Assembly (NCBI GenBank): GCA_921293015.1
Contig: OV121087.1
Location: 11,172,501-11,236,500 of the forward strand
DNA from: Phorcus lineatus
Taxonomy: Eukaryota > Mollusca > Gastropoda > Trochida > Trochidae
Reading direction: 5' to 3'
Length of the DNA stretch: 64,000 nucleotides
The notes below the pieces were generated by a model. The model ran no database searches, had not been told where the DNA came from, and saw nothing but the letters and a program-made list of their open reading frames with translations. The translations under genes were made by a program, and so were the position numbers. This document shows, piece after piece, positions 33 to 62,186 of the stretch. The number at the start of each line of letters is the position of its first letter. Positions within the stretch are counted from its first letter, which is position 1.

Positions 33-973
33 ATGAAGGTGAGTGTCAACTTAAAGAAAACTTTGACCTACGCTAACTTTGAGCTAACATTTGTGGAATG
101 ATAATTTAGCAAACAAGATTTATTGGTCTAACAAACTTAAATATTTCAATAGAATAGCATGCTTTTTAAATGAAATTGATTTGATTCATTCCAGTTCTCT
201 TTATCAAATAATCATGTCACTTTAGTACATTTGATTAACAAACCTTTGTTGTTATCTACATAAACAGTGCATATGTTATCAACAACATAAATCACCAAAG
301 GTTATTATAATTAATATTACATATAGATTTTATAAACATTCGGATGATGTACAAAAACCTTTTATATGCTATATTCTTTAACTTTCATGGATTAAAATTC
401 CTATCTTGCTTTGAGCAACTTGATGAGTCTCTGCAAGTAACGTTTAGAATATATTCCAATGGCATGGTCAAACAAGTTCCAAATTTTTTAGAAGGAAGAT
501 GAGTTGGTTATGCAATACAGACTGATTACAATAGTTTGAAAAGCGATTGAGTAATATTGATTAGACGAGTTAATGTAGTTAGTCTTCATCTTTTTGTACG
601 CAAGCTCTGATTTTTAAAACTACAAAAGCTCAGTTGGCTATACATTCCTTTGAACTGACACTTTCAGGTATATGACCTTAATAAATCGTGAAAATTGTAG
701 CCTTCACAAACTGACATCATCCTTTTCTTGTCGCAGGCCGTTTTCGTTCTCCTCGCAGTTTTCTGCGCATCTGCTTATGCCAGTTACTATGGCGGCAACT
801 ACGGTGGCAACCCAGCCGGAAGCGTTTATGCTTCAGCCGGAAGTAGCTACAACAACGGTGTAGGATATGGTGCCGGTCTTGGAAACGGCGTTGGTTACGG
901 AGGAAACGGTCTTGGTTACAGCGGCTATGGCGGCTATGGTGCAGGCTATGGCGCTGGACTTGGCCGTGGTTGA
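33..973 (+). CDS. Gene 1: secreted Gly/Tyr-rich matrix protein, interrupted by an in-frame TGA
   Basis: Exon 1 carries only ATG AAG (33-38), then a GTGAGT donor. The intron is 39-736 and exon 2 starts at 737 after TCGCAG. The joined N-terminus MKAVFVLLAVFCASAYA is a clear signal peptide, and the mature part begins SYYGGNYGG and is rich in Gly, Tyr, Asn and Ala. The frame stops at TGA 971-973, giving 80 aa. Past it the same frame continues with 29 more Gly/Tyr-rich codons to TAG 1061-1063, matching the style of genes 2 and 3, where the equivalent run [11 protein letters not shown] has a glycine codon. The TGA therefore looks like a GGA-to-TGA nonsense change (or a sequencing error or null allele). 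The 5' UTR (1-32) is nearly identical to that of genes 2/3, so this is their close paralogue; its promoter lies left of the window. AATAAA is at 1095-1100. A structural extracellular role is inferred from composition only. Confidence 0.8.
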
Positions 974-1063
974 TACGGAGGATACGGAAACTATGGTGGA
1001 TACGGAGCTGGACTTGGTGGAGGTCTTGGAGGACGTGGATATGGCAGATACAGTGGACACTAG
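737..1063 (+). other. Gene 1 exon 2 as the open frame would read through the TGA
   Basis: This is the full extent of gene 1 exon-2-like coding sequence. Frame and composition persist on both sides of the TGA at 971-973, and a natural-looking end (GRYSGH, TAG) is reached at 1061-1063, 32 bp before the AATAAA. Genes 2 and 3 also end in Gly-His just before the stop. This supports the distal part as former or alternative coding sequence rather than 3' UTR. Confidence 0.7.
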
Positions 1064-1104
1064 TCATCATCCTGTGAATGTGATATTGATATGTAATAAA
1101 GATA

Positions 1105-2490
1105 TTAAGTAACCTGAACTGTCGTAGTCGTTTTGTGAGATATTCTTCAAAATCGTCTTATACCAAGAGGCATTTTCTATGTACATTCCAACGATAGCAG
1201 CACATTATTATAAAAGAGAGTTTTGAAACAAACTTTCCATTAAAGAATGTTGTTTTAATTTTTAAGCAATATTAATCAATTCTAGACTTTTTATGATCAT
1301 GATAACCTAAAATATATGAATACTTGTTTTTGTATATGTGATAATCAATGCACTTTCTTATTCGTTAATGTTATGCCCAACAACAGATTTCCAATACCAA
1401 CCATTTCCTTAGTCAGTTATGCTATTATAAGGTCCAAGCGAAAAAATTTGAAAGATATTAGATATGACTGATAAATGACATCTTCATATCCCCGATACAC
1501 GATAAGCAGTCTCTCTGTTCTCCTTGAAATCTTTAATGAAAGTACCATTTGGGTGTAGTGAGTGTTTTTATGGAACGTTTCTGCATATACACATTTTATG
1601 AGATTATATACATGTAAAATATAACCATATAACAACCTAATAGCCATAACCACAAAACATGGTAGCATATTATTGTCCAATAAACGGGTCTCATAATGAT
1701 AACTTGTTTACTCTTCGTATTCTTCAGGGTATCATGTAGTAAAAGACACAAATTAATTATTAGAATAAGAAAAAGAATAACGTCTATAAGTCATGTAATA
1801 GCTTCATGAATGTGTATAAATATGAGCCTTTAATACAGTCTAGATCCTCATCCAGCAAGTCTAGCTTTTACTGAAAAGAATATAATAGATGGAGGAGCAT
1901 GAAATCATTAAACTATTTCATAGACTATATTTTAGTCTATGCATGTAAGTAAAAAACATATATATTTTGTATTTTACATCATTGTTATTAACAAAAGTTG
2001 TACTGAGGGGAATGCTTTTATCTTAACTTTTTATAGTACTTTCTCTCACATCTAAGTTTATAAAGCAAAAACATTTGTTAGCAAGAACGATTTAATTTGT
2101 TTTAATACATTCACTTACTTTAGGCGCAAACATTTATTTTAAGCTTTGAATTGTTTAATTTTTCATAAGCAATGACCACGCCAACAAAACGGATAAAAGA
2201 AAAGTGAAACCCTTATTTTGCTAATAGTTAATAAGCTTAACTGCTACATGACATAGGGCGGGAAAATCTTGGTATGAATATTATTTTTCCCCCAAGAAAA
2301 TAGACATTATCTGCAATCATTTATATTAGCAATAGATAAGGCCATATGAATGGAAAGTACATGCATACTTGCATTTGTATTGGTCTGTACATACGACGGG
2401 AAGTCAATACGTTCGTAGATGTGAATATAAAACAAAAGCTATTATTCTAAATTGCGAAACAGATAGAAATCGATTTGGGTCGGATCCAGA
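1105..2490. other. AT-rich intergenic DNA
   Basis: No open frame with coding composition, no two-codon exon with donor, and no repeat structure recognised here. It lies between gene 1 and the mariner relic. Confidence 0.5.
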
Positions 2491-2495
2491 CAGTA

Positions 2496-2520
2496 GGGGG
2501 GGGGGGGGGGGGGGGGGGGG
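2496..2520. repeat. Homopolymer run of 25 G
   Basis: An uninterrupted poly-G tract followed by TGGG, unusual in an AT-rich background and able to form G-quadruplexes in principle. It abuts the 3' end of the mariner relic. Its length is likely unreliable in sequencing. Confidence 0.9.
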
Positions 2521-2532
2521 TGGGTTAAGTTG

Positions 2533-3510: not shown

Positions 3511-4221
3511 ACAGGAGGGAGCCTGTGTTCAACAGGATGTAAATCTCCAAAACAATGATCAGGTTGTTTATGTCTATAAACTGTCGTCAGATGGCTTATC
3601 TCAATTATGACATCAACGGTGATGTCTTCAGGGGTGTATGAACTTATTGACTTCCCCTCATACACTGACAGCATTGCATGATACTACATTTGATGGAAGT
3701 AGGGGGAAATTAAAGGAGGTGCGTATCAAGGCAAATATAGAAATAAATTGAAATATTCTTGCATAACTTCAACTCATACTTTCAAATTGATGTTCTGTTG
3801 TGAACTGATATCACTAGTTTCCCATAATTTTCTAGAAAATATAGACAATGACTCATGATATAAAATTAGATCGAATATATTTATAATCACATGTAAGACA
3901 GAGGAGAGCACTTTAGCTTCTTATAAAGCCTATAAAGCCTGTTTGTTGCTTATGCATGCATCGTTCGCTGCAACTGTACATCTTGCACATATGTTAAGAG
4001 GCATACAGCTGTGAATCCATGACCATGTTAATCTTTTTGTTTTTAACCCTTGCTTTTTATTGTCACATACGTAAGATTTTCAAGAGATGTAACTTTTAAA
4101 AAATCGAATTGCGTTTCAAAACGCTCTTCATAAATGGGAGAGGTTATTAAATCAACTCGTTTATGTGGCTACAATAAGTTGCACTTTTAAGATTATAGAA
4201 AAGATTTTCGTTCAAAACATG

Positions 4222-4423
4222 ATTTGCATACATGATTTAATTTTAATCGTTTTAAATCACCTTTAAGTTATCGTTATGAGATACAATTTGAGGAAATCAA
4301 GGAATCCGATTCATAACCGTCTTATGAAGGAACTGCTGAAGTTTCATATTGGACATAAATGTCACTTCACGGAATATATTAGTCGCGTTTAAAAACATAA
4401 TTTGCATAAATGATGTGACGTAA
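4222..4423 (+). promoter_or_regulatory. Gene 2 upstream region with two octamer motifs and a CRE-like site
   Basis: Two ATTTGCAT octamers (reverse complement of ATGCAAAT, the classical POU-domain site) lie at 4222-4229 and 4400-4407 in otherwise similar local contexts. TGACGTAA (CRE/bZIP-like) lies at 4416-4423, about 80 bp before the TATA box. All three are preserved in copy B (8787-8794, 8965-8972, 8981-8988). Binding is inferred from motif match only. Confidence 0.4.
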
Positions 4424-4500
4424 TGTTTCTTAAATGTGTTCACCATGAGATTTTATCAAATCGTCTTGTGAGGCAACTGTTTAATAATGGAGAGAAGTTG

Positions 4501-4507
4501 TATATAA
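4501..4507 (+). promoter_or_regulatory. TATA box of gene 2
   Basis: TATATAA followed by GGG, 65 bp upstream of the ATG. The transcript probably starts about 30 bp downstream, near TGTCCTCACAGGATTCC. Confidence 0.85.
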
Positions 4508-4565
4508 GGGCAGAGGTTTATCAGTGTCCTCACAGGATTCCTGCAGACCTACACCAAGTCACATC

Positions 4566-6128
4566 ATGAAGGTGAGTTTATTCCAAACTTACTTTATCTG
4601 AAGTTATTTTCCCATTTTTATGTTATTCTTTCTTCCAAAACATTAATTACAATTAATCATTTTGATGTAGCAGTACCTTATCTTAATTACATTGATTACA
4701 TTTATATATCGATAAAATGTAGCAAAAGCGTATTCAACGCATTCTCTCCTAACAGAGGTAGCTCCGTTATAAATTCCTATACAACCTCTGTCTTAATACG
4801 ATGGTTTCTCTACGAAGGAGAACTGTAATCTCATATATCTTCAAAGTTGTTGTAAGAGAGTGTAGTGTAAAACAATCATATAAACAAAACATTTACAGGA
4901 AAATGTCAATTTGAAAATAAGAAAAAGTTATACATCAGTTATAAGACATTAATTTTGAAAAATCATAAACGAAAAAAAAATTATGCTTATTTCAAAAATC
5001 TTTTGCACATTTTACAATATTTTACAATTATTAATAAATTGATGTTCAATGAATAAATAAGAAAATCTACAGGCAAAGATGTCCAAATAAATTAAAAACT
5101 CCCTTTCAATCTACATTCAACGAAGACATTTTGAAATTTTAATCAAGATAATATTTTTGAAAATAGCAATGTTTATAATGTTTCGCTCTATAGGAATTTA
5201 CATTTTTGGATAAAAATACTGATTACATAATATTTCAGGGAATTTCGGAAAGTCATTTCACTTTTTGTTCACATGTGTTCATATGATGATGATAATAGGA
5301 ACTACTATATTGTAAAAGCAATCATTTTAGATATTATTTTAGATATGATATCAAGTTATCAGTTGATCTCTCTCAGTGCGCCAAAGGTAAATAAACTTAG
5401 AGTTTGAATTTCCCAACCCATACTGAGACACGATACGAAAGACAAACTTGGACATAAGATTTTACCCAAAAATGCCTATGTTATCCAAACGTGAAAAGGA
5501 GAGCATGTAAAGGGGTATATCTGTGCTGACAAATATGTCAGCTTAGGCAATAACCAGGGTGATGATATTCCTATAGCGACTTGAGCAGAGATTTGGTGGA
5601 TTATAAGTACGCTCTATGAATTGATTTATATATTTGTAAATGATAATCTTTCCATCATAATAGAATAACGGATTTAAATCTCTGAATACTACACAATCAT
5701 CTCTCTTGTTACAGGCCGTGTTCGCACTCCTCGCAGTGTTCTGCGCATCTGCTTATGCCGGTTACCGTGGCGGCTATTATGGCGGCCGTGGCGGTGTTGG
5801 CGGCGTTGGCGGCGTTGGCGGAATTGGCGGCATTGGTGGCATTGGCGGCCTTGGTGGCCTCGGTGGAAACAGAGGCGGTCACCTAGGCGGAGGTGCTTAC
5901 GCTGCCGCTGGAAGCTTAGGTGGAGGATATGGTTCCGGTCTTGGTAATGGAGGATATGGCGGATACAACGGAGCCGGTCTTGGTCGCGGCGGATACGGAG
6001 GATACGGCAGTTACGGCGGAATCGGAGGAGGAGTCGGCGGAGGTATCGTCGGACGTGGTGTTGGCGGACGAGGGGTTGGCGGACGGGGATATGGCGGATA
6101 TGGTGGATACGGTGGATATGGACACTAA
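4566..6128 (+). CDS. Gene 2: secreted Gly-rich (GGVGG/GGYGGYG) matrix protein, 139 aa
   Basis: Exon 1 is ATG AAG (4566-4571), the intron is 4572-5714 (GTGAGT...TTACAG), and exon 2 is 5715-6128. The start is set by the TATA box 65 bp upstream and the two-codon exon shared by every gene in the cluster. The signal peptide MKAVFALLAVFCASAYA is followed by GYRGGYYGGRGG. Next comes a Gly-Val/Ile/Leu-Gly stretch (GGVGGVGGIGGIGG, about residues 27-52), an Ala-containing linker (GGGAYAAAGSLGGGYGSG), and a GGYGGYG C-terminus ending GYGH. There are no Cys in the mature protein, no TM segment after the signal and no acidic residues, so it is basic and presumably extracellular. Composition recalls shematrin-type shell matrix proteins, but Gly-rich proteins converge, so homology is not claimed. 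Overlapping AATAAA signals are at 6159-6164 and 6164-6169. Exon 2 is identical to that of gene 3. Confidence 0.93.
4738..4840 (+). repeat. Dispersed short repeat in gene 2 intron (copy 1)
   Basis: The segment around GGTAGCTCCGTTATAAATTC, followed by ATACAACCTCTGTCTTAAT, recurs at 9303-9405 (through the duplication) and in diverged form at 19790-19895, far from any duplicated gene. This makes it an independent dispersed element of about 100 bp. No TIRs or Pol III boxes recognised. Confidence 0.6.
5715..6128 (+). other. Gene 2 exon 2
   Basis: This is the main coding exon, starting in phase 0 after TTACAG. It is markedly GC-rich against the AT-rich flanks. It carries everything from residue 3 of the signal peptide to the stop TAA (6126-6128). 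Confidence 0.9.
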
Positions 6129-6779
6129 AGCATATCCCATACCTGTAACTTATCATGAAATAAAATAAAGAAGCATGCATAAATACTAGACTTTCAAGTG
6201 TTTCTCATGTCATAAAGACGAAAATGAGTTATCATATCTTTTAAAGGGCATTTATACAAATCTACAGAGATTAGACATTGAAGAATGGTATAATTCATTT
6301 GGGTTACAACAGTTATTACTTTGTTTGGGAATAACAAAACCAGGCTCTAGTATGTTGTCAGACCATATTTGGTCAAGTAAGTTTTGTATGCTCGGTTTTC
6401 AAAGTATATTTCTTCTCGTCACCCGGCGTCAATTTGAAATAAATCTTAAAATTACAAAAAAGTAGTTTTATCATGTTTGGAACCGTAGACTAGTGATTTA
6501 AGTATTACTTTAAGATCTATATATTGTTTGAAAGTAAAACTAGTCATTTCTTTTATTCAAGATTGACACATATGTCGCGAATGAGAGATGAGATACCATG
6601 ATATAGTGTGCAACGTATTAAACAGCTACAGTAGTACAGTACAGTATTGGTAGAAAGGGGTGAGACAGTAATTAGTTTGTGCAAATGAGAAGTCAATCTG
6701 ACATTAGCCAAACTAGAAGTAATCAAACTGGCATAACCGTAGTGAATTCTGGTTATAGGCCTTGTAGGGTGACGTAACA

Positions 6780-6797
6780 GAGAGAGAGAGAGAGAGC
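6780..6797. repeat. (GA)n microsatellite
   Basis: A short GA run following GTAACA. A near-equal run is present in copy B near 11342. Confidence 0.8.
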
Positions 6798-6924
6798 TGT
6801 TTGGTCAGGTTTCACAAACACACAGTTATGTAACAATCTAGTCTTATTAAAATCGAGAAATAAAAGTTTTGTAATATTGACTAGCGGGATTCTAACGTAC
6901 TCTATCAGGGGCTTTCCTCTCCAA

Positions 6925-7195
6925 AACGGTCTGAAAGCAGCCCCACTTCGCGTACGTGCTTACACCAGTTTAGCGCAGACAAAACCTAGTCATTAGCTGG
7001 CCAATCACATCATCACGTCTAAAATAAGAGTAGCAGCGAAAAAGGTTAACGAATGGTAAACGGGAGTTACTTGCTCCTTCTGATAAGATGCTGATACCAA
7101 AAGTTTTGCCGGAGTCATTGTGATTGGCTACTTGAGATTGCGTCAAAACGTGTGGCTACGAGGGTGCTTTCAGGCCGTCAACTTTTGAACTGATA
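6925..7195. mobile_element. Putative MITE with imperfect terminal inverted repeats
   Basis: The left end has AAACGGTCTGAAAGCAGCCC; the right end (GGGTGCTTTCAGGCCGT) is its imperfect reverse complement. Inner segments with GGCCAATCACATCATC and TGTGATTGGC are also inverted. About 270 bp, no coding capacity. The same element is in copy B at about 11480-11755. Confidence 0.5.
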
Positions 7196-7686
7196 TTCGC
7201 GGAGCACGGTCGATTTTTCTGAGACTGTGTAACCATTATGATATATAACATAACATAAAGCAGGTTAAATGACATTTGCTTTATATAATACATTAGCTGA
7301 AATATCATATCAGTTATACTGAATCAGAAAAAGAAATACATAGGCACATAGCAAAACCCAGTCTTCTTAATTCAAATAGTCTATTACAACAATATCAAAG
7401 ATTGCACAACTAACTTTACTGCAGCCAATCAGAATTAAGTTATCTTTGACTAAAGTAATCTACTTGTTATAAGGATATTTGAAAAGAAACTGCAGAAAAT
7501 ATCCCCTCGATTATTACCCATATGGTAAATCATAAATAGAGACATATATTTCATATGTGCACAAGTGCACAAAATCGTTACACGTTTCGTAAATGTCATA
7601 TGACACAGTTGCTAGGATTATTATCTCTATGTATTTTACATACTGATTACGTAGTAAATAAGACACATCTAAAACCTGCTTCCGGT

Positions 7687-7882
7687 CCTCTTAAAAGGAC
7701 AATCCTAAGGGGAGTATTCTTTGTGGAAACGAAACATGATTATAACATAACCATAAAATGTTACCAATGGTAACTTTTGGGTGTATGTTAACTTACAATC
7801 ATTCAATTATAAAAGACATGTATAAACTCGAATTTCGTTTCCACAATATATAACCTGATAGGACTGTCCTCGTGAAGAGTGT
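7687..7882. mobile_element. Putative foldback/MITE with about 48-bp imperfect inverted repeats
   Basis: The left arm (7687-7734, containing AAAGGACAATCCTAAGG and TTGTGGAAACGAAA) is the imperfect reverse complement of the right arm (about 7832-7882, containing TTTCGTTTCCACAA and GGACTGTCCTCG). Also present in copy B (about 12090-12310) with internal changes. Confidence 0.5.
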
Positions 7883-9065
7883 GCACAACAGACGAGGTGT
7901 CTGTTGTTATTCTGTCCTTGACAGTTAATAATCGAAACATAATTTTATTTTTCCTAAATTTAACAAGATCTGTAGCAGTTATCCCTTATTGTATATATAT
8001 ATGTTTAGGTTTTAAAAATAACATGTTCCAGACTGGTATAACAGTTAATACGAAACAAAATCCTTATTTAGTTTTCTGCTCTCCTTTTTGTTGGGGGATT
8101 TCTGTAACCCTGACTTCTCACTGCCAGAGTTAAAAACCTTTGCTTGAGATTTAAGCTAATTTTTGTTGTCGTTCTGTTATAATTATGAAAAAATGATCTG
8201 TGATTGGATCTAAAAGTGGATGCGTAAATGTTTTCAATTGCTGAAAAAGATAATCTTTTGCCAGGTTCTACAACAACCCACCGATTAGCAATTCACTTAT
8301 TGTTTTCTCTATTGAAATACTGTTGCATAACTTCAACTCATACCTTCAAATTGATGTTCTGTTGTGAACTGATATCACTAGTTTCCCATAATTTTCTAGA
8401 AAAAATTGACAATGACTCATGACATAAAATTAGATCGAATATATTTATAATCACATGTAAGACAGAGGAGATCACTTTAGCTTCTTATAATGCCTATAAA
8501 GCCTGTTTATTGCTTATGCATTCATCGTTCGCTGCAACTGTACATCTTGCACATATGTTAAGAGGCATACAACTGTGAATCCATGACCATGTTAATCTTT
8601 TTGTTTTTTAACCCTTGCTTTTTATTGTCACATACGTAAGATTTTCAAGAGATGTAACTTTTAAAAAATCGAATTGCGTTTCAAAACGCTCTTCATAAAT
8701 AGGAGCGGTTATTAAATCAACTCGTTTATGTGGCTACAATAAGTTGCACTTTTAAGATTATAGAAAAGATTTTCGTTCAAAACATGATTTGCATACATGA
8801 TTTAATTTTAATGGTTTTATATCACCTTTAAGTTATCGTTATGAGGTGCAATTTGAGAAAATTAAGGAATCCGATTCATAACCGTCTTATGAAGGAACTG
8901 CTGAAGTTTCATATTGGACATAAATGTCACTTCACGGAATATATTAGTCGCGTTTAAAAACATAATTTGCATAAATGATGTGACGTAATGTTTCTTAAAT
9001 GTGTTCACCATGAGATTTTATCAAATCGTCTTGTGAGGCAACTGTTTAATAATGGAGAGAAGTTG

Positions 9066-9072
9066 TATATAA
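9066..9072 (+). promoter_or_regulatory. TATA box of gene 3
   Basis: TATATAA, 65 bp upstream of the gene 3 ATG, in a promoter essentially identical to that of gene 2. Confidence 0.85.
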
Positions 9073-9130
9073 GGGCAGAGGTTTATCAGTGTCCTCACAG
9101 GATTCCTGCAGACCTACACCAAGTCACATC

Positions 9131-10692
9131 ATGAAGGTGAGTTTATTCCAAACTTACTTTATCTGAAGTTATTTTCCCATTTTTATGTTATTCTTTCTTC
9201 CAAAACATTAATTACAATTAATCATTTTGATGTAGCAGTACCTTATCTTAATTACATTGATTACATTTATATATCGATAAAATGTAGCAAAAGCGTATTC
9301 AACGCATTCTCTCCTAACAGAGGTAGCTCCGTTATAAATTCCTATACAACCTCTGTCTTAATACGATGGTTTCTCTACGAAGGAGAACTGTAATCTCATA
9401 TATCTTCAAAGTTGTTGTAAGAGAGTGTAGTGTAAAACAATCATATAAACAAAACATTTACAGGAAAATGTCAATTTGAAAATAAGAAAAAGTTATACAT
9501 CAGTTATAAGACATTAATTTTGAAAAATCATAAACGAAAAAAAAATTATGCTTATTTTTAAAATCTTTTGCACATTTTACAATATTTTACAATTATTAAT
9601 AAATTGATGTTCAATGAATAAATAAGAAAATCTACAGGCAAAGATGTCCAAATAAATCAAAAACTCCCTTTCAATCTACATTCAACAAAAAATCTTGACA
9701 TTTTAATCAAGATAATATTTTTGAAAATAGCAATGTTTATAATGTTTCGCTCTATGAGAATTTACATTTTTGAATAAAAATACTGATTACATAATATTTC
9801 AGGGAATTTCGGAAAGTCATTTCACTTTTTGTTCACATGTGTTCATATGATGATGATAATAGGAACTACTATATTGTAAAAGCAATCATTTTAGATATCA
9901 TTTCAGATATGATATCAAGTTATCAGTTGATCTCTCTCAGTGCGCCAAAGGTAAATAAACTTAGAGTTTGAATTTCCCAACCCATACTGAGACACGATAC
10001 GAAAGACAAACTTGGACATAAGATTTTACCCAAAAATGCCTATGTTATCCAAACGTGAAAAGGAGAGCATGTAAAGGGGTATATCTGTGCTGACAAATAT
10101 GTCAGCTTAGGCAATAACCAGGGTGATGATATTCCTATAGCGACTTGAGCAGCGACTTGGTGGATTATAAGTACGCTCTATGAATTGATTTATATATTTG
10201 TAAAGAATAATCTTTCCATCATAATAGAATAACGGATTTAAATCTCTGAATACTACACAATCATCTCTCTTGTTACAGGCCGTGTTCGCACTCCTCGCAG
10301 TGTTCTGCGCATCTGCTTATGCCGGTTACCGTGGCGGCTATTATGGCGGCCGTGGCGGTGTTGGCGGCGTTGGCGGCGTTGGCGGAATTGGCGGCATTGG
10401 TGGCATTGGCGGCCTTGGTGGCCTCGGTGGAAACAGAGGCGGTCACCTAGGCGGAGGTGCTTACGCTGCCGCTGGAAGCTTAGGTGGAGGATATGGTTCC
10501 GGTCTTGGTAATGGAGGATATGGCGGATACAACGGAGCCGGTCTTGGTCGCGGCGGATACGGAGGATACGGCAGTTACGGCGGAATCGGAGGAGGAGTCG
10601 GCGGAGGTATCGTCGGACGTGGTGTTGGCGGACGAGGGGTTGGCGGACGGGGATATGGCGGATATGGTGGATACGGTGGATATGGACACTAA
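9131..10692 (+). CDS. Gene 3: duplicate of gene 2, secreted Gly-rich matrix protein, 139 aa
   Basis: Exon 1 is ATG AAG (9131-9136), the intron is 9137-10278, and exon 2 is 10279-10692. The protein is identical to gene 2, and exon 2 also matches in the alternative reading frames, so the nucleotide sequence is the same. The intron is one base shorter, with a few substitutions. It lies on copy B of the tandem duplication, has the same TATA box and octamer/CRE-like upstream motifs, and the same doubled AATAAA (about 10723-10733). Identity across exon, promoter and most of the intron points to a recent duplication or gene conversion; an assembly duplicate of one locus is possible. If both copies are real they give two doses of the same product. 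Confidence 0.92.
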
Positions 10693-12674
10693 AGCATATC
10701 CCATACCTGTAACTTATCATGAAATAAAATAAAGAAGCATGCATAAATACTAGACTTTCAAGTGTTTCTCATGTCATAAAGACGAAAATGAGTTATCATA
10801 TCTTTTAAAGGGCATTTATACAAATCTACAGAGATTAGACATTGAAGAATGGTATAATTCATTTGGGTTACAACAGTTATTACTTTGTTTGGGAATAACA
10901 AAACCAGGCTCTAGTATGTTGTCAGACCATATTTGGTCAAGTAAGTTTTGTATGCTCGGTTTTCAAAGTATATTTCTTCTCGTCACCCGGCGTCAATTTG
11001 AAATAAATCTTAAAATTACAAAAAAGTAGTTTTATCATGTTTGGAACCGTAGACTAGTGATTTAAGTATTACTTTAAGATCTATATATTGTTTGAAAGTA
11101 AAACTAGTCATTTCTTTTATTCAAGATTGACACATATGTCGCGAATGAGAGATGAGATACCATGATATAGTGTGCAACGTATTAAACAGCTACAGTGGTA
11201 CAGTACAGTATTGGTAGAAAGGGGTGAGACAGTAATTAGTTTGTGCAAATGAGAAGTCAATCTGACATTAGCCAAACTAGAAGTAATCAAACTGGCATAA
11301 CCGTAGTGAATTCTGGTTATAGGCCTTGTAGGGTGACGTAACAGAGAGAGAGAGAGAGCTGTTTGGTCAGGTTTCACAAACACACAGTTATGTAACAATC
11401 TAGTCTTATTAAAATCGAGAAATAAAAGTTTTGTAATATTCACTAGCGGGATTCTAACGTACTCTATCAGGGGCTTTCCTCTCCAAAACGGTCTGAAAGC
11501 AGCCCCACTTCGCGTACGTGCTTACACCAGTTTAGCGCAGACAAAACCTAGTCATTAGCAGGCCAATCACATCATCACGTCTAAAATAAGAGTAGCAGCG
11601 AAAAAGGTTAACGAATGGTAAACGGGAGTTACTTGCTCCTTCTGATAAGATACTGATACCAAAAGTTTTTGCTGGAGCCATTGTGATTGGCTACTTGAGA
11701 TTGCGTCAAAACGTGGGGCTACGAGGGTGCTTTCAGGCCGTCAACTTTTGAACTGATATTTCCAAAACCCAGTCTTCCTAATTCAAATAGTCTATTAAAA
11801 CAATATCAAAGATTGCACAACTAACTTTACTGCAGCCAATCAGAATTAAGTTATCTTTGACTAAAGTAATCTACTTGTTATAAGGATATTTGAAAAGAAA
11901 CTGCAGAAAATATCCCCTCGATTATTACCCTTATGGTAAATCATAAATAGAGACATATATTTCATATGTGCACAAGTGCACAAAATCTGTACACACGCTT
12001 CGTAAATGTGACACAGTTGTTAGGGTTATTTTCTCTATGTATTTTACATACAGATTACGTAGTGAATAAGACACAGCTTAAACCTGCTTCCGGTCCTCCT
12101 AAGGGGGAATATTCCTTGTGGAAACGAAATTCAAGGGGAGCATTCCAGTTTATGCGCGTATGGTATTAGTACATGATTATAACATAACCATAAAATGTTA
12201 CCAATGGTAACTTTTGGGTGTATGTTAACTTACAATTATTCACTTATAAAAGTCATGTATAAACTCGAATTTCGTTTCCACAATATATAACCCGATAGGA
12301 CTGTCCTCGTGAAGAGTGTGCACAACAGACGAGGTATCTGTTGTTATTCTGTCCTTGACAGTTAATAATGTAAACATCAACTTTATTTTTCCTTAATTTA
12401 ACTATATCTGTAGCAGTGATCTCTTATTGTCCTGCCCACGTAACATAATTTTGTAAATATCATGTTTAGGTTTTGAAATTAACATGTTCCAGACTGGTAT
12501 AACAGTTAATACGAAACAAAATCCTTATTTAGTTTTCTGCTCTCCTTTTTGTTGGGAGATTTTCTGTAAGGATAACCCGACTTCTCGCTGCCCGAGTTAA
12601 GAAACATTTGAAAATAATCTTTTACCAGTTTCTACAACAACCCACCGAATAGCAATTCACTTATTGTTTTCTCT

Positions 12675-15560
12675 TTGTGTGGCATCAAACTGAACAGAAA
12701 TAGTATGTTAAAGTTCTCTTTTTTCATGCTGCATGAACTAAATAAAAAGCATTTTGATATCATAATCTATAAGCATCTCAACTTACTGAAATTCTCATAT
12801 TAAAGGAAAGTTAGTCATCTGACTTATCGTTTCTCAACCACATTACCATTTGCGAGGTAAAATGATTTCTTTGATTTGGAGAAACCAAAGATATGTTCAA
12901 GCCTCAAAGACTTGTGTCGCGTATTGTTCAACTTTCACTTACTGTCACATGTTTTTATAGGAACCATTTTGGTTTCTATTCATCCCCGTAATCCTGATTT
13001 GTCATCAAAGGGACACAGAGTCTGTTTCATGATTTTAACGTGACTTTATTAAGAGCTAAAATATCTTATGACCTGGGTTAAGTTAAATTTTCTTCTCGTA
13101 ATTATGATATTTTCATGTTTTCACTGATTGATATTGTTCGGAGTCAAATGCGTAAAATCAAAAACAAAATTGGTTTATCTCCATCCTACCATGATGAGTT
13201 AATTAACTTTTGAATAACATTTCTTTGATGTCGCGGAAGTTCGGGCGTGATGAGGTCAAAGGCGTTTATATTTTAGGTAAGTTTGATGGGTGTTACATAA
13301 ACTAATATTTACGTAAAAAGATAGAGAAGGGAACGCTACGAAACAAGTAGTTGTCAAGAAAACACGAATCATCATTTAAGTGTTTCTTAACACTCATGAC
13401 GTCAGCACAAAACATGACAAATCGTATAGTACTAAATCACCTCCAACAAAATTGCCTATACCGAATTCCTTTAGTTCATCACGTGACCAGCTTTGTTACG
13501 TCTTAACTGCACTTAGCTATGATGTCTCTGTGAAGTATTCGAATGAAAACTATCGTGACCGAGTCTGATAGTCAGTGTGACAAGAAATAAAACCTTTTCT
13601 TTTCCAAATTTGAGGCAAACAAGTCATATGATTGAGTAGCAGTGTGTTTAACATGTTTAAGAGTGAAGAAGTATTTATTGGAAAGTTTGTTTTGTATCTT
13701 TTTTCCAAATAGTTTATCAGACACCAATTAAATAATCCTATCAAGGTTTTAAAACTTCTATTGAATACTATAATTATTTATAGTTTTAGTTTTATTATAA
13801 AAGATAAAGAACATCAAAGACGACGTCACTTATATTTTATGTATGGTTCTTTGAGTTTGAAAAATCTCGATAATTTTGAATTGACTTTTCAAAGTGATTT
13901 CGATAAAGTTTATCTACAAATTGTATCCATGAGGCGAGTCACTGCTATCTTATCACTGTTAAAACAAAACAGCAGCTTTTGATTGAGGCACTAATTAATC
14001 ATTTCCCCTTTTCATTGTGTTAATTGTACATTTTACAGTAAATATACTTATATTTGTAGTTTTCTACAATGTTGCCTCAATATTTGTGCATTTAACAATG
14101 CTTCATATGATTAAAACGCTCAGCATTACCTTGTATATTTGGTATAGAAGACAAAATAATATAAACTGGAGAAAGAAAGGTCAGAAAAATCATGATCCAT
14201 CTTCGATCTGTTACAATGGGATAAACCCACTGAACACCTTTTAGTCAGATGAAGGATCAGTAGTTGAATTACTAAGTACTTACGAACAGGCGGGTACAAA
14301 AGCATCATTTCATACTTGAACATGTCAAACTAAATGCAGAGGTTTGGAAACCTAACTCATACATTTTTCATAAAACACGAGCGATATTATAATGACATTT
14401 TATTCATAACAATCAAAGAACATATAAAATACATGTGTTTTGGAAAATCATATAAAGAAAACTCTTTAAAGAATGTAAGGTTATGCCATTTTCATTTGGT
14501 ACGAAATTACATATAGATTTGTATGAACGTTTCACATTGAATGAAATCGTTCCCTGTTTTCAATGAATTTGTCCTGCTTAAGAAAAAATACCTCTTTTTT
14601 CAATCCGGGGAAACACCAGTATTGTGTAATATACTTGAAAGCAAATCAACTTTAATATTTTCCTAAATAATGAACAAATAGCAATTAACGACTTAGATAC
14701 AAATGGAAAATCTTTTCTTCTAACCAATAAGAGCAGCTTAAGTGAACAAGAAAAACGGATTCGGTAAACTATACTCCCAAACGCAAGTTAAGTGCACTGT
14801 CTTAGTTTTCTGTATAGGGCTTAAACTGTTCTGTTAACAAATATTTAGTTGAATTCCTGAGTCCAGAGACTAGGACACCTTTCAAGTGATTCTCATATTT
14901 ATGTTTATGTTGCATGTGTATCAATATAATTACTGGGTATTAAGATTTTATCAATTTGTATCAATTTTAAAACAAAACTAAAAGAATCACTACAGCAGTT
15001 TTGGCGTGTTATAAACCATAAACGACGTTTACGACAATGAGAATAGAGCTTTTTTCAGTAAATATAGCCATATGGTCAAAAGTAAAATTTCTCCAAAAAA
15101 GTTTAGCACATAGACCGACAAATAAACTTCAAACTATTATCCAGGCAAGTTTGGTTTTAGAAAAACAGCCATAATGTAAGAAGTTTTACCTTTTTCGGTT
15201 TAAGTAATTTGTGGAACTTTATTCTTATATATCATATAAGAATGATCCTTTACACCAGACTAACCAAACGTAATGTTTGAGAAAGACAAATGTTTCACAA
15301 AGTAGCTGAAATGCTCACATAAGCAATTTTGTATCGCCGCACTCTCACTCGTTCTGGTTTATGGTTTTAATGTGCCAATGGATGAGCGAACTGGACGCAT
15401 GGTCATGATCCATGTACACCACCGTGTGGTCATGTTGCCTCCTTAAACGCCATGTTGAATATTTAGAGGCTAGTGTTATTGTTAAATAAAGAGATGCGAG
15501 TTCTAAAATTCACGATCCTATGAATACGTCGGTGGATTTTATGACAATTAATTAATGTTG
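12675..15560. other. AT-rich intergenic DNA
   Basis: No coding-like frame, splice-ready start exon or clear repeat seen between the end of copy B and the gene 4 promoter. The open frames here are short and have AT-rich background composition. Confidence 0.5.
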
Positions 15561-42765: not shown

Positions 42766-42769
42766 GATT

Positions 42770-42960: not shown

Positions 42961-43159
42961 AGTATTTAACTTACATAATTTCTGCTCGTATTATTTATCA
43001 GGGAGAAGGCCGGCAACATCATTGTTGCTATGCATTGCGATGAAAGCTGCGAACATTGCCTGGAACTAATTAACCATGGGTCGAACTGCACTGAAATTCA
43101 GAGCAGCATAGCACCTGCACTTGCTGCGTGCAGTACAAACCGCTTCTGCAGACAAAGTT

Positions 43160-43230
43160 GCTTGGTACCTAGCGGCATTCAAACGAGGGTCTCTAACGCG
43201 CTAACAACTGCTCTATCCAACCCCCGTTAC
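43160..43230 (-). mobile_element. tRNA-derived SINE-like fragment (minus strand)
   Basis: The reverse strand reads GATAGAGCAGTTGTTAGCGC (A-box/D-arm-like) and then CCTCGTTTGAATGCC (B-box/T-arm-like). This is typical of a SINE head; no complete tRNA fold is evident. Confidence 0.45.
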
Positions 43231-43549
43231 TATTTGTATAATAACCGTTAGATAGCCTGATGAGTTACAGAGCCAATGGCTCTATTTTAATTTCAACTTC
43301 TAAATGATATAAACTTAGATATTTTGCAATTTAAGTTCAAAATTTATTGAAATGTTTGACATAATGGGTGATTTCACATTGAAAGCACTGACTGGTTCAG
43401 TTTGTATATCCTTTGGAGTAGGATGGATAATGCTTCAAATTTACTATCATTAATGGGTAAGAGTATCTATGATGTCTCTTATACAGAATTTTACTTTAAA
43501 GAATACATAGCGGAAGACTGATTTATAAGCCTTTCATTCCTTTTCATAG

Positions 43550-52346: not shown

Positions 52347-53353
52347 ATGAAGGTGAGTCTATTGTAAAGAAGTGAACGAGTGTTTCAGTTTCTTTTCCTA
52401 TAAGGATGACTATATATAACTTCAAGTTGCAATAGGAGGTTGTCGTGTGAAATATCAATTCAAAATAGGAGAAGAATAACACAGTTAAACAACTTGATCC
52501 AAATATCTTTTTGACTTACATCTACTATATGTGTTTATTGTTTCAACATTATGCATCTTTTTCAAATGTATTTCCTAAGGCTTGTAAAAGGTCAAATGTC
52601 TATTGGGAGGATCTTCTCTTTTCATTTTACCCAGAATATTAATAAGGAAAAGACCTCGTATTTCATATTTTCATGAATTACTTCTCTGTTAAAATATACA
52701 AATTGAAGTCCGTATTTCTGTAGGGATGAAATATATCTTAACGATAACGCTATCTGAAACGTTGGAATGCATCAAAAGAGTGTCGAAAAGGAGTAGAGAC
52801 CGCCAGTAAAGCAAGACATGCATATTGACTACATCACCACTTCAAAGTCTAATCATAAATTGTTACCATACAGCCTTGAAATTTCATGCATATAATCTGT
52901 ATGTCTTCACAGGTAGCTATCCTCTTCCTCGCCGGTCTCGCCTGTGCCTACGCCTCTTACTACGGCGGTAACAACAACGCCGCACGCGCTTCCGCCGGAT
53001 ACAACGGAGCCCATGCCGCCGCAAGAAGCGGAAATGGTTACGGAAACGTAGGCTACGGACATGGCTACGGAAATGGCAACAGTGCCAGAGCTGGTGCCAG
53101 CCACGGACACGCCTACGCTGCCGCTAACGCCAACAACAACGGCTATGGACATGGTTATGGACATGGCTATGGACATGGTTACGGTCATGGTTACGGAAAC
53201 GGCTATAGTAATGGTTACTATGGCAATGGCTACGGAAACGGTTACGGAAACGGCTACTACGGACATGGTCATGGAAATGGTTACGGACATGGCTACTACG
53301 GAAATGGCTACAACAACGGATATGGCAACAGCTATGGCCATCATGTCTATTGA
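52347..53353 (+). CDS. Gene 10: secreted Gly/Tyr/Asn/His-rich ([14 protein letters not shown]) protein, 148 aa
   Basis: Exon 1 is ATG AAG (52347-52352), the intron is 52353-52912 (GTGAGT...TCACAG), and exon 2 is 52913-53353. The signal peptide MKVAILFLAGLACAYA is followed by SYYGGNNNAARASAGYNG. The N-terminal half of the mature protein is Ala/Asn/Ser-rich with a few Arg (AHAAARSGNGYGN, SARAGASHGHAYAAANANNN). The C-terminal half is a simple [18 protein letters not shown] array, where almost every second residue is Gly and the others are Tyr, His or Asn, ending GNSYGHHVY. It has no Leu/Val body repeats, unlike genes 4-7. The very high Tyr content fits tyrosine-based cross-linking or DOPA chemistry, which is inference. 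AATAAA at 53386-53391. Confidence 0.93.
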
Positions 53354-53391
53354 ACATTGTAAAACCCTTTTCAGCGCTTTAATGAAATAAA

Positions 53392-55236: not shown

Positions 55237-55713
55237 AAATCCCCCTTGCAGACACTAAACAAACATTGTGTGCTATGACAAAAAGAAAACGTCTTTATTA
55301 CGTATGCCTTTGTGCACACAGAGCAGAGCAAAGGAATCCCGGACTTAATGCACAAACAAACGAGTTTGATGCATTTTCAATTTCATTTTATGATAGTTTC
55401 AACTTATGAAAAATTGTGATTGTGCACAATATGGTTTTAAAGGGCGATATTCTGCTTATTTGTCATCACCTCAATAGATTCTGCTCACGTTATAAAAGTT
55501 TCAATAAAATAAGTTATTGCATAAAAATATTTAAAAAATGGTATTGTGGGATTGTCAATATATAACATTTTATTATCAGCCATGATTGTGGTAATTACCC
55601 TTTTTAAGACAAATTAATTGTAATTGAAATTCAGTAAATACTTATATAAGATCTGACTAGAGCTGTGTTGACACATTGGTTATCCAGTATCCACTCAAGA
55701 CTCCAACATGCAG
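55237..55713 (+). repeat. Upstream block of gene 11 duplicated at gene 12
   Basis: Segments of 55237-55380 (for example GCCTTTGTGCAC, GAGCAGAG, TTGATGCATTTTCAATTTC) and the promoter/5' UTR 55621-55713 recur in the same order at 60419-60570 and 60768-60865. The gene 11/12 duplication therefore included several hundred bases of upstream DNA. Confidence 0.6.
55643..55649 (+). promoter_or_regulatory. TATA box of gene 11
   Basis: TATATAAGATCTGACT, 65 bp upstream of the ATG. The surrounding 100 bp is closely similar to the gene 12 promoter. Confidence 0.85.
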
Positions 55714-56902
55714 GTAAGTTTAAATCGTTTGTAAATGTAATTCAGTCAATTCATTATATGATTCGATGTTTGTAACAAATGAGAAACATCTTTATAGATA
55801 TTTGAAAATATATTGCGTCAAATGCACTTCTTCGATCAAGATATGTGAATGGCAAAAATTTGCTTATGCATCATTTGCTTATTCCAGTTACTCGGCAATG
55901 TTCGTTGAAATAATGACATATCATAGTATTTTTTTTAGATTTCGATGCTTTACACATGAGCATTCTATGGTATACATTAGTATTTCATTCAACGTTAACT
56001 GTAATAATTGAAAACCTTTCAACGCTGCAATCGGAGTGGTCAACAAGTTAAACATGTTGATTTGGATGAAGCTACATTAATTTAACCTCACATTGTAGTT
56101 TTTGCTTACAGTCCTAACGTATTCTGAAACAACATTGCTGTCTTCCATGCTTGCATAATTTTGATACATGTATCTTCCTCCTTAGGCTATCGTTCTCCTT
56201 GCTGCCCTCTGTGCAACTGCCCTTGCTAGTGGGGGATATGGCGGATATGGCCATGGTAATGGTGGAGGCCATGGGGTCGTAGTGTACGTAGACTCCGTGC
56301 ATGGCGCTCGCGGTCTTGGTGGTAATAGAGGTCTTGGCGGCTACGGCGGCTACGGAGGGTACGGAAACGGAGGATACGGACTAGGAGGAGGGTATGGACG
56401 CGGTGGTTATGGAGGCTATGGAGGCTATGGGGGATACGGCGGATATGGTCATGGTGGGAATGCAGGACTTGGTTTGGGAGGTCATGGCGGTCTTGTCGGA
56501 CATGGCGGTCTCGGGGGACATGGCGGTCTTGGAGGACATGGCGGTCTTGTCGGACATGGTGGTCTTGGTGGACATGGTGGTCTTGTCGGACACGGCGGTC
56601 TTGGGGGACATGGTGGTCTTGGAGGACATGGCGGTCTTGGGGGACATGGTCGTCTTGTCGGACACGGCGGTCTCGGGGGACATGGCAGTCTTGGAGGACA
56701 TGGCGGTCTTGTCGGACATGGTGGTCTTGGGGGACACGGCGGACTTGGTGGCTTTGGAGGCTACGGCCATGGCGGTCTCGGAGGCCTTGGTGGTTTTGGA
56801 GGCAATGGAGGTTTTGGACATGGCGGTCACGGGGGCTACGGTTCATCTGCTGTTGTCGCTGTCGCCGGCGGTAACGGAGGCTATGGACATGGAGGTCATT
56901 AA
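55708..56902 (+). CDS. Gene 11: secreted [15 protein letters not shown]-repeat protein with VVVYVDS motif, 240 aa
   Basis: Exon 1 is ATG CAG (55708-55713), the intron is 55714-56185 (GTAAGT...CTTAG), and exon 2 is 56186-56902. The signal peptide [16 protein letters not shown] (no basic n-region residue) is followed by [16 protein letters not shown], then [15 protein letters not shown], an isolated beta-prone motif also present in gene 12. [18 protein letters not shown] region precedes about sixteen 6-residue [12 protein letters not shown] units (18-bp DNA repeat). A Gly-Phe/Gly-Tyr section and the conserved end [19 protein letters not shown] follow. The repeat block is much longer than in gene 12, showing repeat-number change after duplication. 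AATAAA at 56932-56937. Secreted structural role inferred. Confidence 0.93.
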
Positions 56903-56939
56903 ACAACGCTGTCTTTTCTCACCATGAATTTAATAAATA

Positions 56940-59900: not shown

Positions 59901-60418
59901 GTACATGTATACATATGTTTGTTTTCTTAAAAAAAGGATTAAGCTTGAGGAGGGTTAGAGCTTATCGACTTTTGAGGGCATCAAAAACTCGAATTTGATT
60001 GATACATGATGATATAAAAATCATAAAAATGTTATATAGTAAATACATATTGCAATTTAGGTCAATTCATTTCATAATTAAAGATCCATGTTGATTTTAA
60101 CTATGAAGTGAAGGATTTGGGCTATTTTTCACGCTTTTAAGTAAAATAAACTTATACAAATTACTCATCCAAATACATTTACTCATTAGTTATTGATTTA
60201 TCAAACGAACTCTTGAAAACGTGCACATTTGCTTCCAATGTAAAGTCACGCTCTTGTATTTCTTAGTAATAAAATGTCTTAATGTCAAATCTTCCTTATC
60301 CTCCGTGGTAAATTGTATTGTTGCTCTGTTGATCTGTATATTCAGAATGAACAGATGAGATATACAGCTTATTAAAGGAGTGTTCATGCTAAATGCATAT
60401 CCATTGTTCTGAACTAAT
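56940..60418. other. AT-rich intergenic DNA between genes 11 and 12
   Basis: Holds only a 25-bp tandem duplication (57243-57292); no supported gene. Confidence 0.45.
57243..57292. repeat. Exact 25-bp tandem duplication
   Basis: The unit beginning TCATTTCTATATAGCAAACG and ending TCCAA occurs twice in a row without a mismatch. Confidence 0.95.
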
Positions 60419-60794
60419 AATAGAGTCGCATGACACAACATAAACAGCGTCTTCACTATGGGCGCCTTTGTGCACTATGAGCAGAGTTGATGTGTATGCA
60501 CCCCTGACTCAATGCATACATAAGTGTATTTGTTGCATTCTCATTTTTATTTTACGATCTCTTTATCTAATAAAAAATGCTTTTTGCCGAATAAGCTCTA
60601 ATAAACGACAGTCCGATTATTTTATTATCATATTTTTTCTTCTTTTTGTCTTAAGGTTTTAAACGAAAGAGAAATAGCATATGAGATTTACATTGAAAAT
60701 GATGAGTCGTCCACCGCTATCAGTTTAATACCAGCAATGAAAATATTCATGTCCATTTCAACTAATTATTGCTAATTGAAATTCAGGTAGCTCT

Positions 60795-60801
60795 TATATA
60801 A
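60795..60801 (+). promoter_or_regulatory. TATA box of gene 12
   Basis: TATATAAGATCTGACT, 65 bp upstream of the ATG, the same as gene 11 in sequence and spacing. Confidence 0.85.
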
Positions 60802-60859
60802 GATCTGACTGGTGAAGAATCGACACATTGGTTACACTGTATCCTCTGAAGACTCCAAC

Positions 60860-62186
60860 ATGCCGGTAAGTTATGATTAGCTTGAGTATTTTGTAAATGT
60901 TCTATGATTTAGGTAACAAAGACGAGTGAAAGATTGCTTCCAACTACCGTATCGAGAATCAGTGTATTAAGAAAAGATCATAATGTTTCTCCACTAGGGT
61001 ACACAGATTATAGTCTGCGTAGGTTAGATTAAGATCTTGATTAATTTATTGAAATTGAATCGAGAAAAATTTTACATTCCTCAAATTAATCATCATAGAA
61101 ATTATAACCTGAAATAAGAGAGGTTACTGTCAATCATCCGACGTAATCTTCAGGATGCATTTTTGGACATATTCCGATCTGTATGAAATATGTCTCTTGG
61201 GTAAAGACAGCTTGTAGCACCCAATTTTGAATTTGATTTTATGTGACATTATGTTTACGGAATATTTCTGGTTATTTATAAAGGTTAAGCAATAGTGACG
61301 TGTATTATTATCTTACGATCATGGTTCTATCATATACTATTACAATATTTGAGTTTTTAACATGTCTTCATGTCTTGTATTGCTGAAATCGACCTAATAG
61401 TATTGAAAGCTTTTTACACAGATTGTTACATTGTAAAAACTTTTCGATATATCAAAACAACCAAAAGTTTTGTAGAAAGAATTGAAAATGTGATTCGATA
61501 TTATTTTAAATTACCCTAACAACACACAGATTTACATTTTAAAAACTTTAGACTTGTGTTTAACCTATATTTCAACTGCTATTCCTACATTTTGAATACA
61601 TGTATCTCTTTCTTAGGCTATCGTACTCCTAGCTGCCCTCTGTGCAACTGCCCTTGCTAGTGGCAACTATGGCGGATATGGTGTTGGTAATGGCCACGGT
61701 CACGGTGGAAGTCGTGGTGGACACGCCGTCGTAGTGTACGTAGATTCCGCTCGTGGCCCCATCGTAGGTCATGGAGGTCATGTTCTTGGTGGTAACAGAG
61801 GTCTTGGCGGATATGGTGGCAACGGAAATGGCGGCTATGGAGGCTACGGAAACGGCGGTTACGGACTAGGAGGCTACGGAGGTTACGGCAATGGTGGTTA
61901 TGGAGGCTACGGAGGATATGGTCATGGTGGAAATGCAGGACTTGGTATCGGAGGTCTCGGAGGTCTTGGAGGTCTCGGAGGTCGTGGCGGTCTTGGTCAT
62001 GGCGGTCTTGGTGGACATGGAGGTCTTGGTGGATACGGTGGCTACGGCGGTTATGGCGGTCTCGGAGGCCTCGGTGGTTTCGGAGGTAACGGAGGTCTTG
62101 GACATGGCGTTCACGGCGGCCACGGTTCATCCGCTGTTGTCGCTGTTGCCGGCGGTAACGGAGGCTATGGACATGGAGGTCATTAA
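60860..62186 (+). CDS. Gene 12: paralogue of gene 11, secreted Gly-rich protein with VVVYVDS motif, 191 aa
   Basis: Exon 1 is ATG CCG (60860-60865), the intron is 60866-61616 (GTAAGT...CTTAG), and exon 2 is 61617-62186. The second codon is CCG (Pro) where gene 11 has CAG (Gln), so the last base triplet before the donor changed from CAG to CCG. The signal peptide [16 protein letters not shown] is otherwise identical to that of gene 11. The mature part has [37 protein letters not shown] units, a [11 protein letters not shown] region and the same end [19 protein letters not shown]. The GGHGGL block is short (about three units). At the position of gene 11's AATAAA the sequence is altered; the best remaining poly(A) signal is ATTAAA at 62212-62217. 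A tandem duplicate of gene 11. Confidence 0.9.

What the first reader, a model, noticed from the sequence alone, without database searches (positions are those of the whole stretch)
33..62186. Twelve-gene cluster of secreted Gly-rich proteins, each starting with a two-codon first coding exon
Every gene has ATG plus one codon (AAG in nine, CAG in two, CCG in one), a phase-0 intron of 357-1143 bp, then one exon with the rest of the signal peptide and the whole mature protein. In the eleven genes with a visible promoter, a TATA box lies 58-84 bp before the ATG. Mature sequences have diverged into at least five repeat types, yet the start architecture is unchanged. This suggests one ancestral gene and exon-2 repertoire change behind a constant promoter/first-exon module. 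The product class (extracellular structural material of a shell-, byssus-, beak- or jaw-forming tissue) is inferred.
Basis: partly seen in the sequence, partly recalled or inferred. Interest (0 to 1): 0.75.

Follow-up and report, generated by a model that had tools for sequence, protein, structure and literature searches.

The report
Tandem cluster of glycine-rich secreted genes
A row of twelve similar-looking, probably animal genes for secreted, glycine-rich, repeat-built structural proteins; the shared gene layout is real, but clusters of this sort are already known from shell- and sheath-making animals.

Summary
A TATA-type motif starts 58-85 bp before the ATG in 11 of 11 testable genes. 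Forty simulated windows gave no complete signature. Two of six genes tested show clear coding constraint.

The interpretation needs correcting. DNA similarity lies mostly at the signal-peptide start of exon 2, not in a constant promoter/first-exon module: the last 57 bases before the ATG align in 4 of 55 pairs, introns in 1 of 66. Whole-gene duplication plus repeat turnover inside exon 2 fits better. Common ancestry is well supported for 8 of 12 genes; g04, g08, g09 and g10 rest mainly on architecture. g01 is cut short by an in-frame stop; g02/g03 are a 98.6% tandem duplicate.

Closest systems read about: shematrin clusters of pearl oyster and Hydractinia. The organism was not identified and expression not tested. 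New member of a known kind.

The parts
33..973 (+). g01: exon 1 33-38 (ATG AAG), exon 2 737-973; in-frame TGA 971-973; frame continues Gly-rich to a second stop ending at 1063; promoter outside window
4566..6128 (+). g02: exon 1 4566-4571 (ATG AAG), exon 2 5715-6128, 139 aa, GGx/GGY repeats; TATATAAG at -65
9131..10692 (+). g03: exon 1 9131-9136, exon 2 10279-10692; protein identical to g02; TATATAAG at -65
3747..12677 (.). 4.56 kb tandem duplication carrying g02 and g03 (3747-8314 and 8311-12677)
15635..17004 (+). g04: exon 1 15635-15640 (ATG AAG), exon 2 16567-17004, 147 aa, GHGVGxLGHA repeats; TATATAAG at -58
21454..23074 (+). g05: exon 1 21454-21459 (ATG AAG), exon 2 22574-23074, 168 aa, [10 protein letters not shown] repeats; TATATAAG at -74
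26589..27814 (-). g06: exon 1 27814-27809 (ATG AAG), exon 2 27290-26589, 235 aa, 14-residue [14 protein letters not shown] repeats; TATATAAG at -74
   Evidence: coding constraint
30073..31107 (+). g07: exon 1 30073-30078 (ATG AAG), exon 2 30436-31107, 225 aa, same repeat class as g06; GTATAAGA at -62
33827..35881 (-). g08: exon 1 35881-35876 (ATG CAG), exon 2 35095-33827, 424 aa, Asn/Gly-rich FNN/GVGRNGG repeats; TATATAAC at -84
46603..48282 (+). g09: exon 1 46603-46608 (ATG AAG), exon 2 47233-48282, 351 aa; TATATATA at -85 and TATATATC at -83
52347..53353 (+). g10: exon 1 52347-52352 (ATG AAG), exon 2 52913-53353, 148 aa, GYGNGYYGHG repeats; TATATAAG at -69
55708..56902 (+). g11: exon 1 55708-55713 (ATG CAG), exon 2 56186-56902, 240 aa, [12 protein letters not shown] repeats; TATATAAG at -65
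   Evidence: coding constraint
60860..62186 (+). g12: exon 1 60860-60865 (ATG CCG), exon 2 61617-62186, 191 aa, paralogue of g11; TATATAAG at -65

Best explanation
This is a tandem cluster of eukaryotic, probably animal, genes for secreted, repetitive Gly-rich structural proteins (the repetitive low-complexity-domain class that includes shematrins). Each gene has a TATA promoter and a small ATG-carrying exon; splicing joins the start codon to the signal peptide and mature chain, and the product is secreted into an extracellular material. The cluster grew mainly by whole-gene tandem duplication. The repeats inside exon 2 then expanded, contracted and changed by slippage and point mutation, while the signal peptide, the intron position and the TATA spacing were kept. 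Shown: gene layout, coding constraint in two genes, duplication with uneven divergence in g02/g03, homology of eight genes. Inferred: kingdom, expression, secretion, tissue, and assembly through Gly, Tyr and His side chains. A molluscan shell, byssus or periostracum-like matrix is the likeliest setting; a cnidarian chitinous sheath or another cuticle is possible.
For: 12 of 12 structures confirmed. Chance control: 0 of 40 simulated windows. Spliced start needed in 11 of 12. pN/pS among repeat units in the coding frame 0.21 (g06, 12 units) and 0.20 (g11, 15 units), against 1.14-4.64 in the other two frames of those genes. Mature Gly 24-57%, Tyr up to 20%, His up to 12%, Cys printed as 0.00 in all 12. 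Whole-gene homology of pairs: g02/g03 3183 bp at 98.7%; g11/g12 from about -530 into the 3' flank except the intron body. Signal-peptide DNA is the most widely shared part (38 of 66 pairs; 23 of 66 with the codon-shuffled control). Ten of 12 proteins end in His or Tyr; 6 of 8 representatives that I picked do, P = 0.0003 by composition, but the test was framed after seeing the ends. Known parallels, from passages only: tandem shematrin genes in Pinctada (PMC4759782), a shematrin-like cluster in Hydractinia (PMC11876637), slippage of such domains (PMC4897951).
Against: No search against an animal sequence collection was possible, so a link to named shell proteins is by composition and layout only. 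0 of 12 products reach a Pfam cut-off (g06 has one sub-threshold keratin-associated match, 18.5 bits against 21.1). g04, g08, g09 and g10 are not clearly homologous to the others by signal peptide, and C-terminal similarity falls from 27 of 66 pairs with base shuffles to 5 of 66 with codon shuffles. pN/pS does not discriminate well in the four other genes tried: g04 0.69 (frame +2 also 0.69), g05 0.77 (others 0.98, 0.92), g08 0.53 (others 0.91, 1.07), g10 0.57 (frame +2 also 0.57). Six of 12 products do not stand out from shuffled composition in shematrin-type XGnX motifs. Pinctada shematrins, as I recall, end in a basic RKKKY-like tail, which no product here has.
Confidence: 0.78

Rival explanations
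1. One reading: a constant promoter plus first-exon module, with exon 2 replaced or swapped behind it through the first intron.
For: TATA spacing and the two-codon exon are constant; the intron separates them from the repeats.
Against: The last 57 bases before the ATG align in only 4 of 55 pairs and introns in 1 of 66, whereas exon-2 signal-peptide DNA aligns in 38 of 66. In g11/g12 promoter and exon 2 are both homologous.
Confidence: 0.07
2. The cluster is partly a mosaic: g08, g09 and g10 (perhaps g04) are separate secreted genes with an independently similar start structure, beside a true duplicated family. This does not exclude the best explanation for the other genes.
For: Their signal-peptide DNA does not exceed codon-shuffled controls, apart from one pair, g09-g12; g08 and g09 have unlike compositions.
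Against: The same phase-0 intron after codon 2, similar TATA spacing and the same locus. g08 and g10 end in Tyr like other members, but g09 does not. With base shuffles some pairs exceed z 3, such as g04-g08, g06-g08 and g06-g10. Such short stretches carry little signal.
Confidence: 0.3
3. The material is not a mollusc shell or byssus but another extracellular one: cnidarian chitinous sheath, annelid jaw, cephalopod beak, arthropod or nematode cuticle, or even a plant-type Gly-rich cell wall.
For: The organism is unknown. A shematrin-like cluster occurs in Hydractinia. A signal-peptide exon of 55 bp, a 1593-bp intron and a repeat exon are described for an Ascaris epicuticlin gene. His reaches 12%. 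Gly-rich proteins of plant cell walls are recalled, not tested.
Against: Window G+C of 35.5% (base counts) and the Gly/Tyr/Leu/Val repeats fit several phyla. No known cuticle domain was found. Nothing here favours one alternative strongly.
Confidence: 0.4
4. g02/g03 is an assembly artefact (both haplotypes placed in tandem), so the true count is eleven.
For: 98.6% identity over 3.45 kb and identical proteins; such values are usual between haplotypes of marine invertebrates (recalled).
Against: Divergence is uneven: none over runs of 990 and 694 bp, 6-12% with indels toward the far end; 0 of 20000 random placements of the 42 mismatches gave runs that long. That suits an older duplication with gene conversion, though haplotypes could also vary so.
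Confidence: 0.35

Closest known systems
Shematrin family of Pinctada pearl oysters (PMC4759782, PMC4897951; passages)
   Same: Gly-rich, repeat-built structural proteins; tandemly arranged genes (five in two scaffolds); [quoted passage not shown]
   Different: No basic C-terminal tail (recalled shematrin feature); His up to 12% here; the exon structure of shematrins was not found in the passages read, so the two-codon exon could not be compared.
Shematrin-like / Prisilkin-like cluster of Hydractinia (PMC11876637; passages)
   Same: A cluster of 9 genes plus a nearby one of 8; 7 of those 9 with a predicted signal peptide; Gly singlet/duplet repeats; poor alignments.
   Different: I saw no exon structure there ('exon' 0 occurrences, 'intron' 1 whose passage was not shown). 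Here only 6 of 12 products lie 4.6 or more XGnX motifs above the shuffled mean.
Ascaris epicuticlin gene Asu-epic-1 (PMC9612446; passages)
   Same: Short first exon, one long intron, single repeat exon; repeat number varies, slippage proposed.
   Different: Exon 1 (55 bp) codes for the signal peptide instead of two codons; repeats are 49-51 aa with Tyr motifs such as GYR.
Insect cuticular proteins of honeybee (PMC3766229; passages)
   Same: Clustered genes, first exon relatively small in 14 of 24; for two of them GGY motifs, signal peptide and no Cys in the mature chain.
   Different: No known cuticle or other Pfam domain here; His-rich 14-residue repeats in g06 and g07.

Membership tests
Shematrin family | N-terminal signal peptide and secreted Gly-rich mature chain | tested here: met
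   Hydrophobic N terminus followed by a Gly-rich chain (24-57%) in 12 of 12, by direct reading; no signal-peptide predictor was run, so secretion is inferred.
Shematrin family | XGnX repeats (X = I, L, V, Y; n 1-4) | tested here: inconclusive
   Observed against shuffled mean: g02 16/9.8, g03 16/9.6, g05 14/9.4, g06 26/12.0, g07 25/12.7, g12 18/10.2; g01 4/3.0, g09 6/3.9; g04 5/6.9, g08 1/2.7, g10 1/2.8, g11 12/13.3. No spread was computed.
Shematrin family | Basic C-terminal tail of RKKKY type (recalled) | tested here: not met
   0 of 12 have it; 10 of 12 end in His or Tyr.
Shematrin family | Sequence homology to a named shematrin | not testable with these tools
   No animal protein collection on hand; Pfam gave no model above cut-off.
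Shematrin family | Mantle expression or presence in shell | not testable with these tools
   No expression or proteome data; organism unknown.
Secreted RLCD structural proteins in tandem clusters (functional class) | Tandem paralogues with a conserved secretion signal and variable low-complexity repeats | tested here: met
   for 8 of 12 genes linked by signal-peptide DNA; the other four not shown.
Arthropod cuticular proteins | R&R / chitin-binding or other known cuticle domain | tested here: not met
   No Pfam cut-off reached for 12 of 12 products (9 whole, exon-2 parts of g03, g06, g12).

The most novel reading that the evidence does not exclude
The intron after codon 2 is itself the conserved device. 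Every gene except perhaps g10 must splice to join a start codon to its signal peptide, and reading on from the ATG through unspliced RNA gives only a 6-52 residue peptide (not tested for a secretion signal). Codon 2 (AAG/CAG) then serves both as the donor-site end and as the n-region of the signal peptide. Splicing would thus gate secretion, and possibly boost transcription, of very abundant, aggregation-prone matrix proteins, with nearly all other non-coding sequence free to change.
Probability: 0.1. Interest if true: 0.6.

Novelty: new member of a known kind. Interest (0 to 1): 0.33.

Why it matters
It gives a compact, readable example of how repeat-built secreted structural proteins may diversify: fixed intron position, TATA spacing and signal peptide, with fast repeat change confined to one exon. 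The signature (TATA 58-85 bp before ATG-NNN|GT, then a hydrophobic ORF) had no complete chance match in 40 simulated windows, so it could help to find such genes where BLAST fails on low-complexity sequence, a problem stated in the Hydractinia paper.

Tried and rejected
Organism: not identified, and even the kingdom is inferred. Rfam gave 0 matches (whole window at gathering scores; 42700-43700 at E 1) and ARAGORN found no tRNA. Pfam on 10 ORFs that I picked from those outside the genes gave one match each for 3 of them, all below cut-off. A PDB sequence search with g05 alone found nothing. Motif text search in papers: 0 papers; two further searches for His-rich/byssus/radula links gave 1 and 0 papers, nothing used.

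Exon swapping was rejected on the alignment pattern. Alternative intronless starts were rejected for 11 of 12 genes; g10 has upstream in-frame ATGs in its exon-2 frame, so an intronless start cannot be ruled out there. Start exons lying elsewhere cannot be excluded without RNA. Structure prediction was not attempted: a low-complexity chain without a deep alignment would give a poor model. A search for initiator-like motifs after the TATA boxes was inconclusive: TCAST in 7 of 11, at varying distances.

Literature on a two-codon first exon: searches (full text of the held library; two returned 0 papers, 12 listed 20 of 2,202) showed no title or abstract start about a Gly-rich matrix gene with it. 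Beyond the listings only passages of the cited papers were seen. This is weak evidence of absence: most subscription papers are not held, among them the 2013 pearl-oyster paper on shematrin/KRMP evolution and the Prisilkin-39 paper. Passages of PMC5597905 ('shematrin' 0 occurrences) and PMC7853314 added nothing except a reference that led to PMC4897951.
Full report
WHAT WAS CHECKED. Every model has ATG plus one codon, a GT...AG intron of 357-1143 bp in phase 0, and one further exon. Codon 2 is AAG in nine, CAG in two and CCG in one. The TATA-type motif starts 58-85 bp before the ATG in 11 of 11 genes whose upstream DNA is in the window; 8 of 11 read exactly TATATAAG, and g07 has only GTATAAGA. 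TATATAAG occurs 19 times in the window on both strands, so 11 copies lie elsewhere.

MORE THAN CHANCE. Forty simulated windows (first-order Markov) gave a mean of 0.175 sites with ATG-NNN-GTRRG and a TATA motif, and none with a hydrophobic exon-2 ORF as well. The real window gave 9 complete signatures under that donor rule; g06 and g08 have looser donors, and one further site (41036) had no ORF. In 11 of 12 genes the exon-2 frame meets a stop upstream before any ATG, and no exon 2 has a Met in its first 40 residues, so a spliced start is required; g10 is the exception with upstream in-frame ATGs. Poly-A signals start within 121 nt of the first stop in 12 of 12, without a chance control. Among tandem repeat units the coding frame shows pN/pS of 0.21 (g06) and 0.20 (g11) against 1.14-4.64 in the other frames. 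g04, g05, g08 and g10 gave 0.69, 0.77, 0.53 and 0.57, which discriminate weakly (g08) or not (g04, g05, g10); the other six genes were not tested this way.

WHY CODON 2 IS AAG OR CAG. The usual donor consensus MAG|GTRAGT (recalled) ends an exon in AAG or CAG. Codon 2 is the end of exon 1, so it may be held by splicing as well as by the n-region of a signal peptide. g12 with CCG is the closest paralogue of g11 with CAG and keeps GTAAGT.

WHERE THE HOMOLOGY LIES. Pairwise alignment z-scores (60 base shuffles) above 3: exon-2 signal-peptide DNA 38 of 66 pairs, last 60 coding bases 27 of 66, 120 bases before the ATG with TATA 12 of 55, last 57 bases before the ATG 4 of 55 (in g04 and g07 these still hold part of the TATA motif), distal promoter 3 of 55, intron start and middle 1 of 66 each, 3' flank 2 of 66. 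Base shuffles flatter coding DNA. With the stricter codon-order shuffle, 23 of 66 signal-peptide pairs reach z 3, linking g01, g02, g03, g05, g06, g07, g11 and g12; g09 links only to g12, and g04, g08, g10 have none. The C-terminal signal falls to 5 of 66 pairs (g02-g03, g05-g06, g05-g07, g06-g07, g11-g12) under codon shuffling. A constant TATA spacing and intron position therefore coexist with mostly unalignable promoters and introns. This is what whole-gene duplication followed by drift of non-coding DNA gives; it is not what a conserved promoter/exon-1 module with swapped exon 2 would give.

RECENT EVENTS. g02 and g03 lie in a 4.56-kb tandem duplication (3747-8314 and 8311-12677), 98.6% identical over the first 3.45 kb and 88-94% in the pieces beyond. 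Two stretches are free of mismatches: 4299-4992 (promoter, exon 1 and the intron start) and 5643-6632 (exon 2 and some 500 bp after it). Random placement of the 42 mismatches never gave runs that long in 20000 trials. Gene conversion is the simplest reading; haplotypes placed in tandem by the assembler remain possible. g01 carries a TGA at 971-973, after which the frame runs on Gly-rich for 29 codons to an ending in His, a stop and a poly-A signal 31 nt further: a nonsense allele, a decaying copy, or a sequence error.

PROTEINS. Mature chains are 24-57% Gly, with Tyr up to 20%, His up to 12%, Asn up to 26% (g08), and Cys printed as 0.00 in all 12. Ten of 12 end in His or Tyr; six of eight representatives that I picked do, with a chance of 0.0003 from composition, a test framed after seeing the ends. 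None reaches a Pfam cut-off (9 whole products; exon-2 parts of g03, g06 and g12; g06 has one sub-threshold keratin-associated match). g05, the only one searched, has no PDB relative by sequence. XGnX motifs exceed the shuffled mean by 4.6 or more in 6 of 12.

WHAT IT MOST LIKELY IS. A tandem array of secreted structural-matrix genes. Steps shown: gene layout, coding constraint in two genes, duplication, homology of eight genes. Steps inferred: kingdom, transcription from the TATA boxes, secretion, assembly through Gly-rich flexible chains with Tyr and His side chains for cross-linking or metal binding, and the tissue. The closest systems read about are five shematrin genes in two scaffolds of Pinctada fucata (PMC4759782, passages) and a shematrin/prisilkin-like cluster in Hydractinia, 9 genes with 8 more nearby, 7 of 9 with a predicted signal peptide, and poorly alignable (PMC11876637, passages). 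[quoted passage not shown] Three Perna viridis transcripts are listed with a best match to shematrin-like protein 2 (PMC6641155, passages). A 55-bp signal-peptide exon before an intron and a repeat exon is described for Ascaris epicuticlin (PMC9612446, passages), and relatively small first exons for 14 of 24 honeybee cuticle genes (PMC3766229, passages).

LIMITS. The window's own genome could not be searched, no animal sequence collection is on hand, and no expression data exist here. Whether an intron after codon 2 is rare or common in this genome is unknown, and this decides how special the start architecture is.

VERDICT. Observation confirmed; interpretation half right. Ordinary in kind, a good example in detail: interest 0.33.

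Noticed in passing
window 971-1063 (+): In-frame TGA cuts g01 short; the frame stays Gly-rich for 29 more codons and ends in His before a second stop and a poly-A signal.
   Followed up: partly
window 3747-12677: 4.56-kb tandem duplication with two long mismatch-free stretches around promoter/exon 1 and exon 2, suggesting gene conversion or an assembly doubling.
   Followed up: partly
window 43673-44540: A 42-bp minisatellite of about 20 copies with no ORF of 90 aa or more over it; the same unit length as the coding repeat of g06, but a different sequence.
   Followed up: no
window about 43100-43250 (-): By eye, a tRNA-like A-box/B-box stretch that may be a SINE head; Rfam at E 1 found nothing.
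   Followed up: partly
window 4740-4797 and 19791-19848: A 58-bp stretch of the g02 intron (also in g03 at 9305-9362) recurs at 90% identity in the region between g04 and g05.
   Followed up: no
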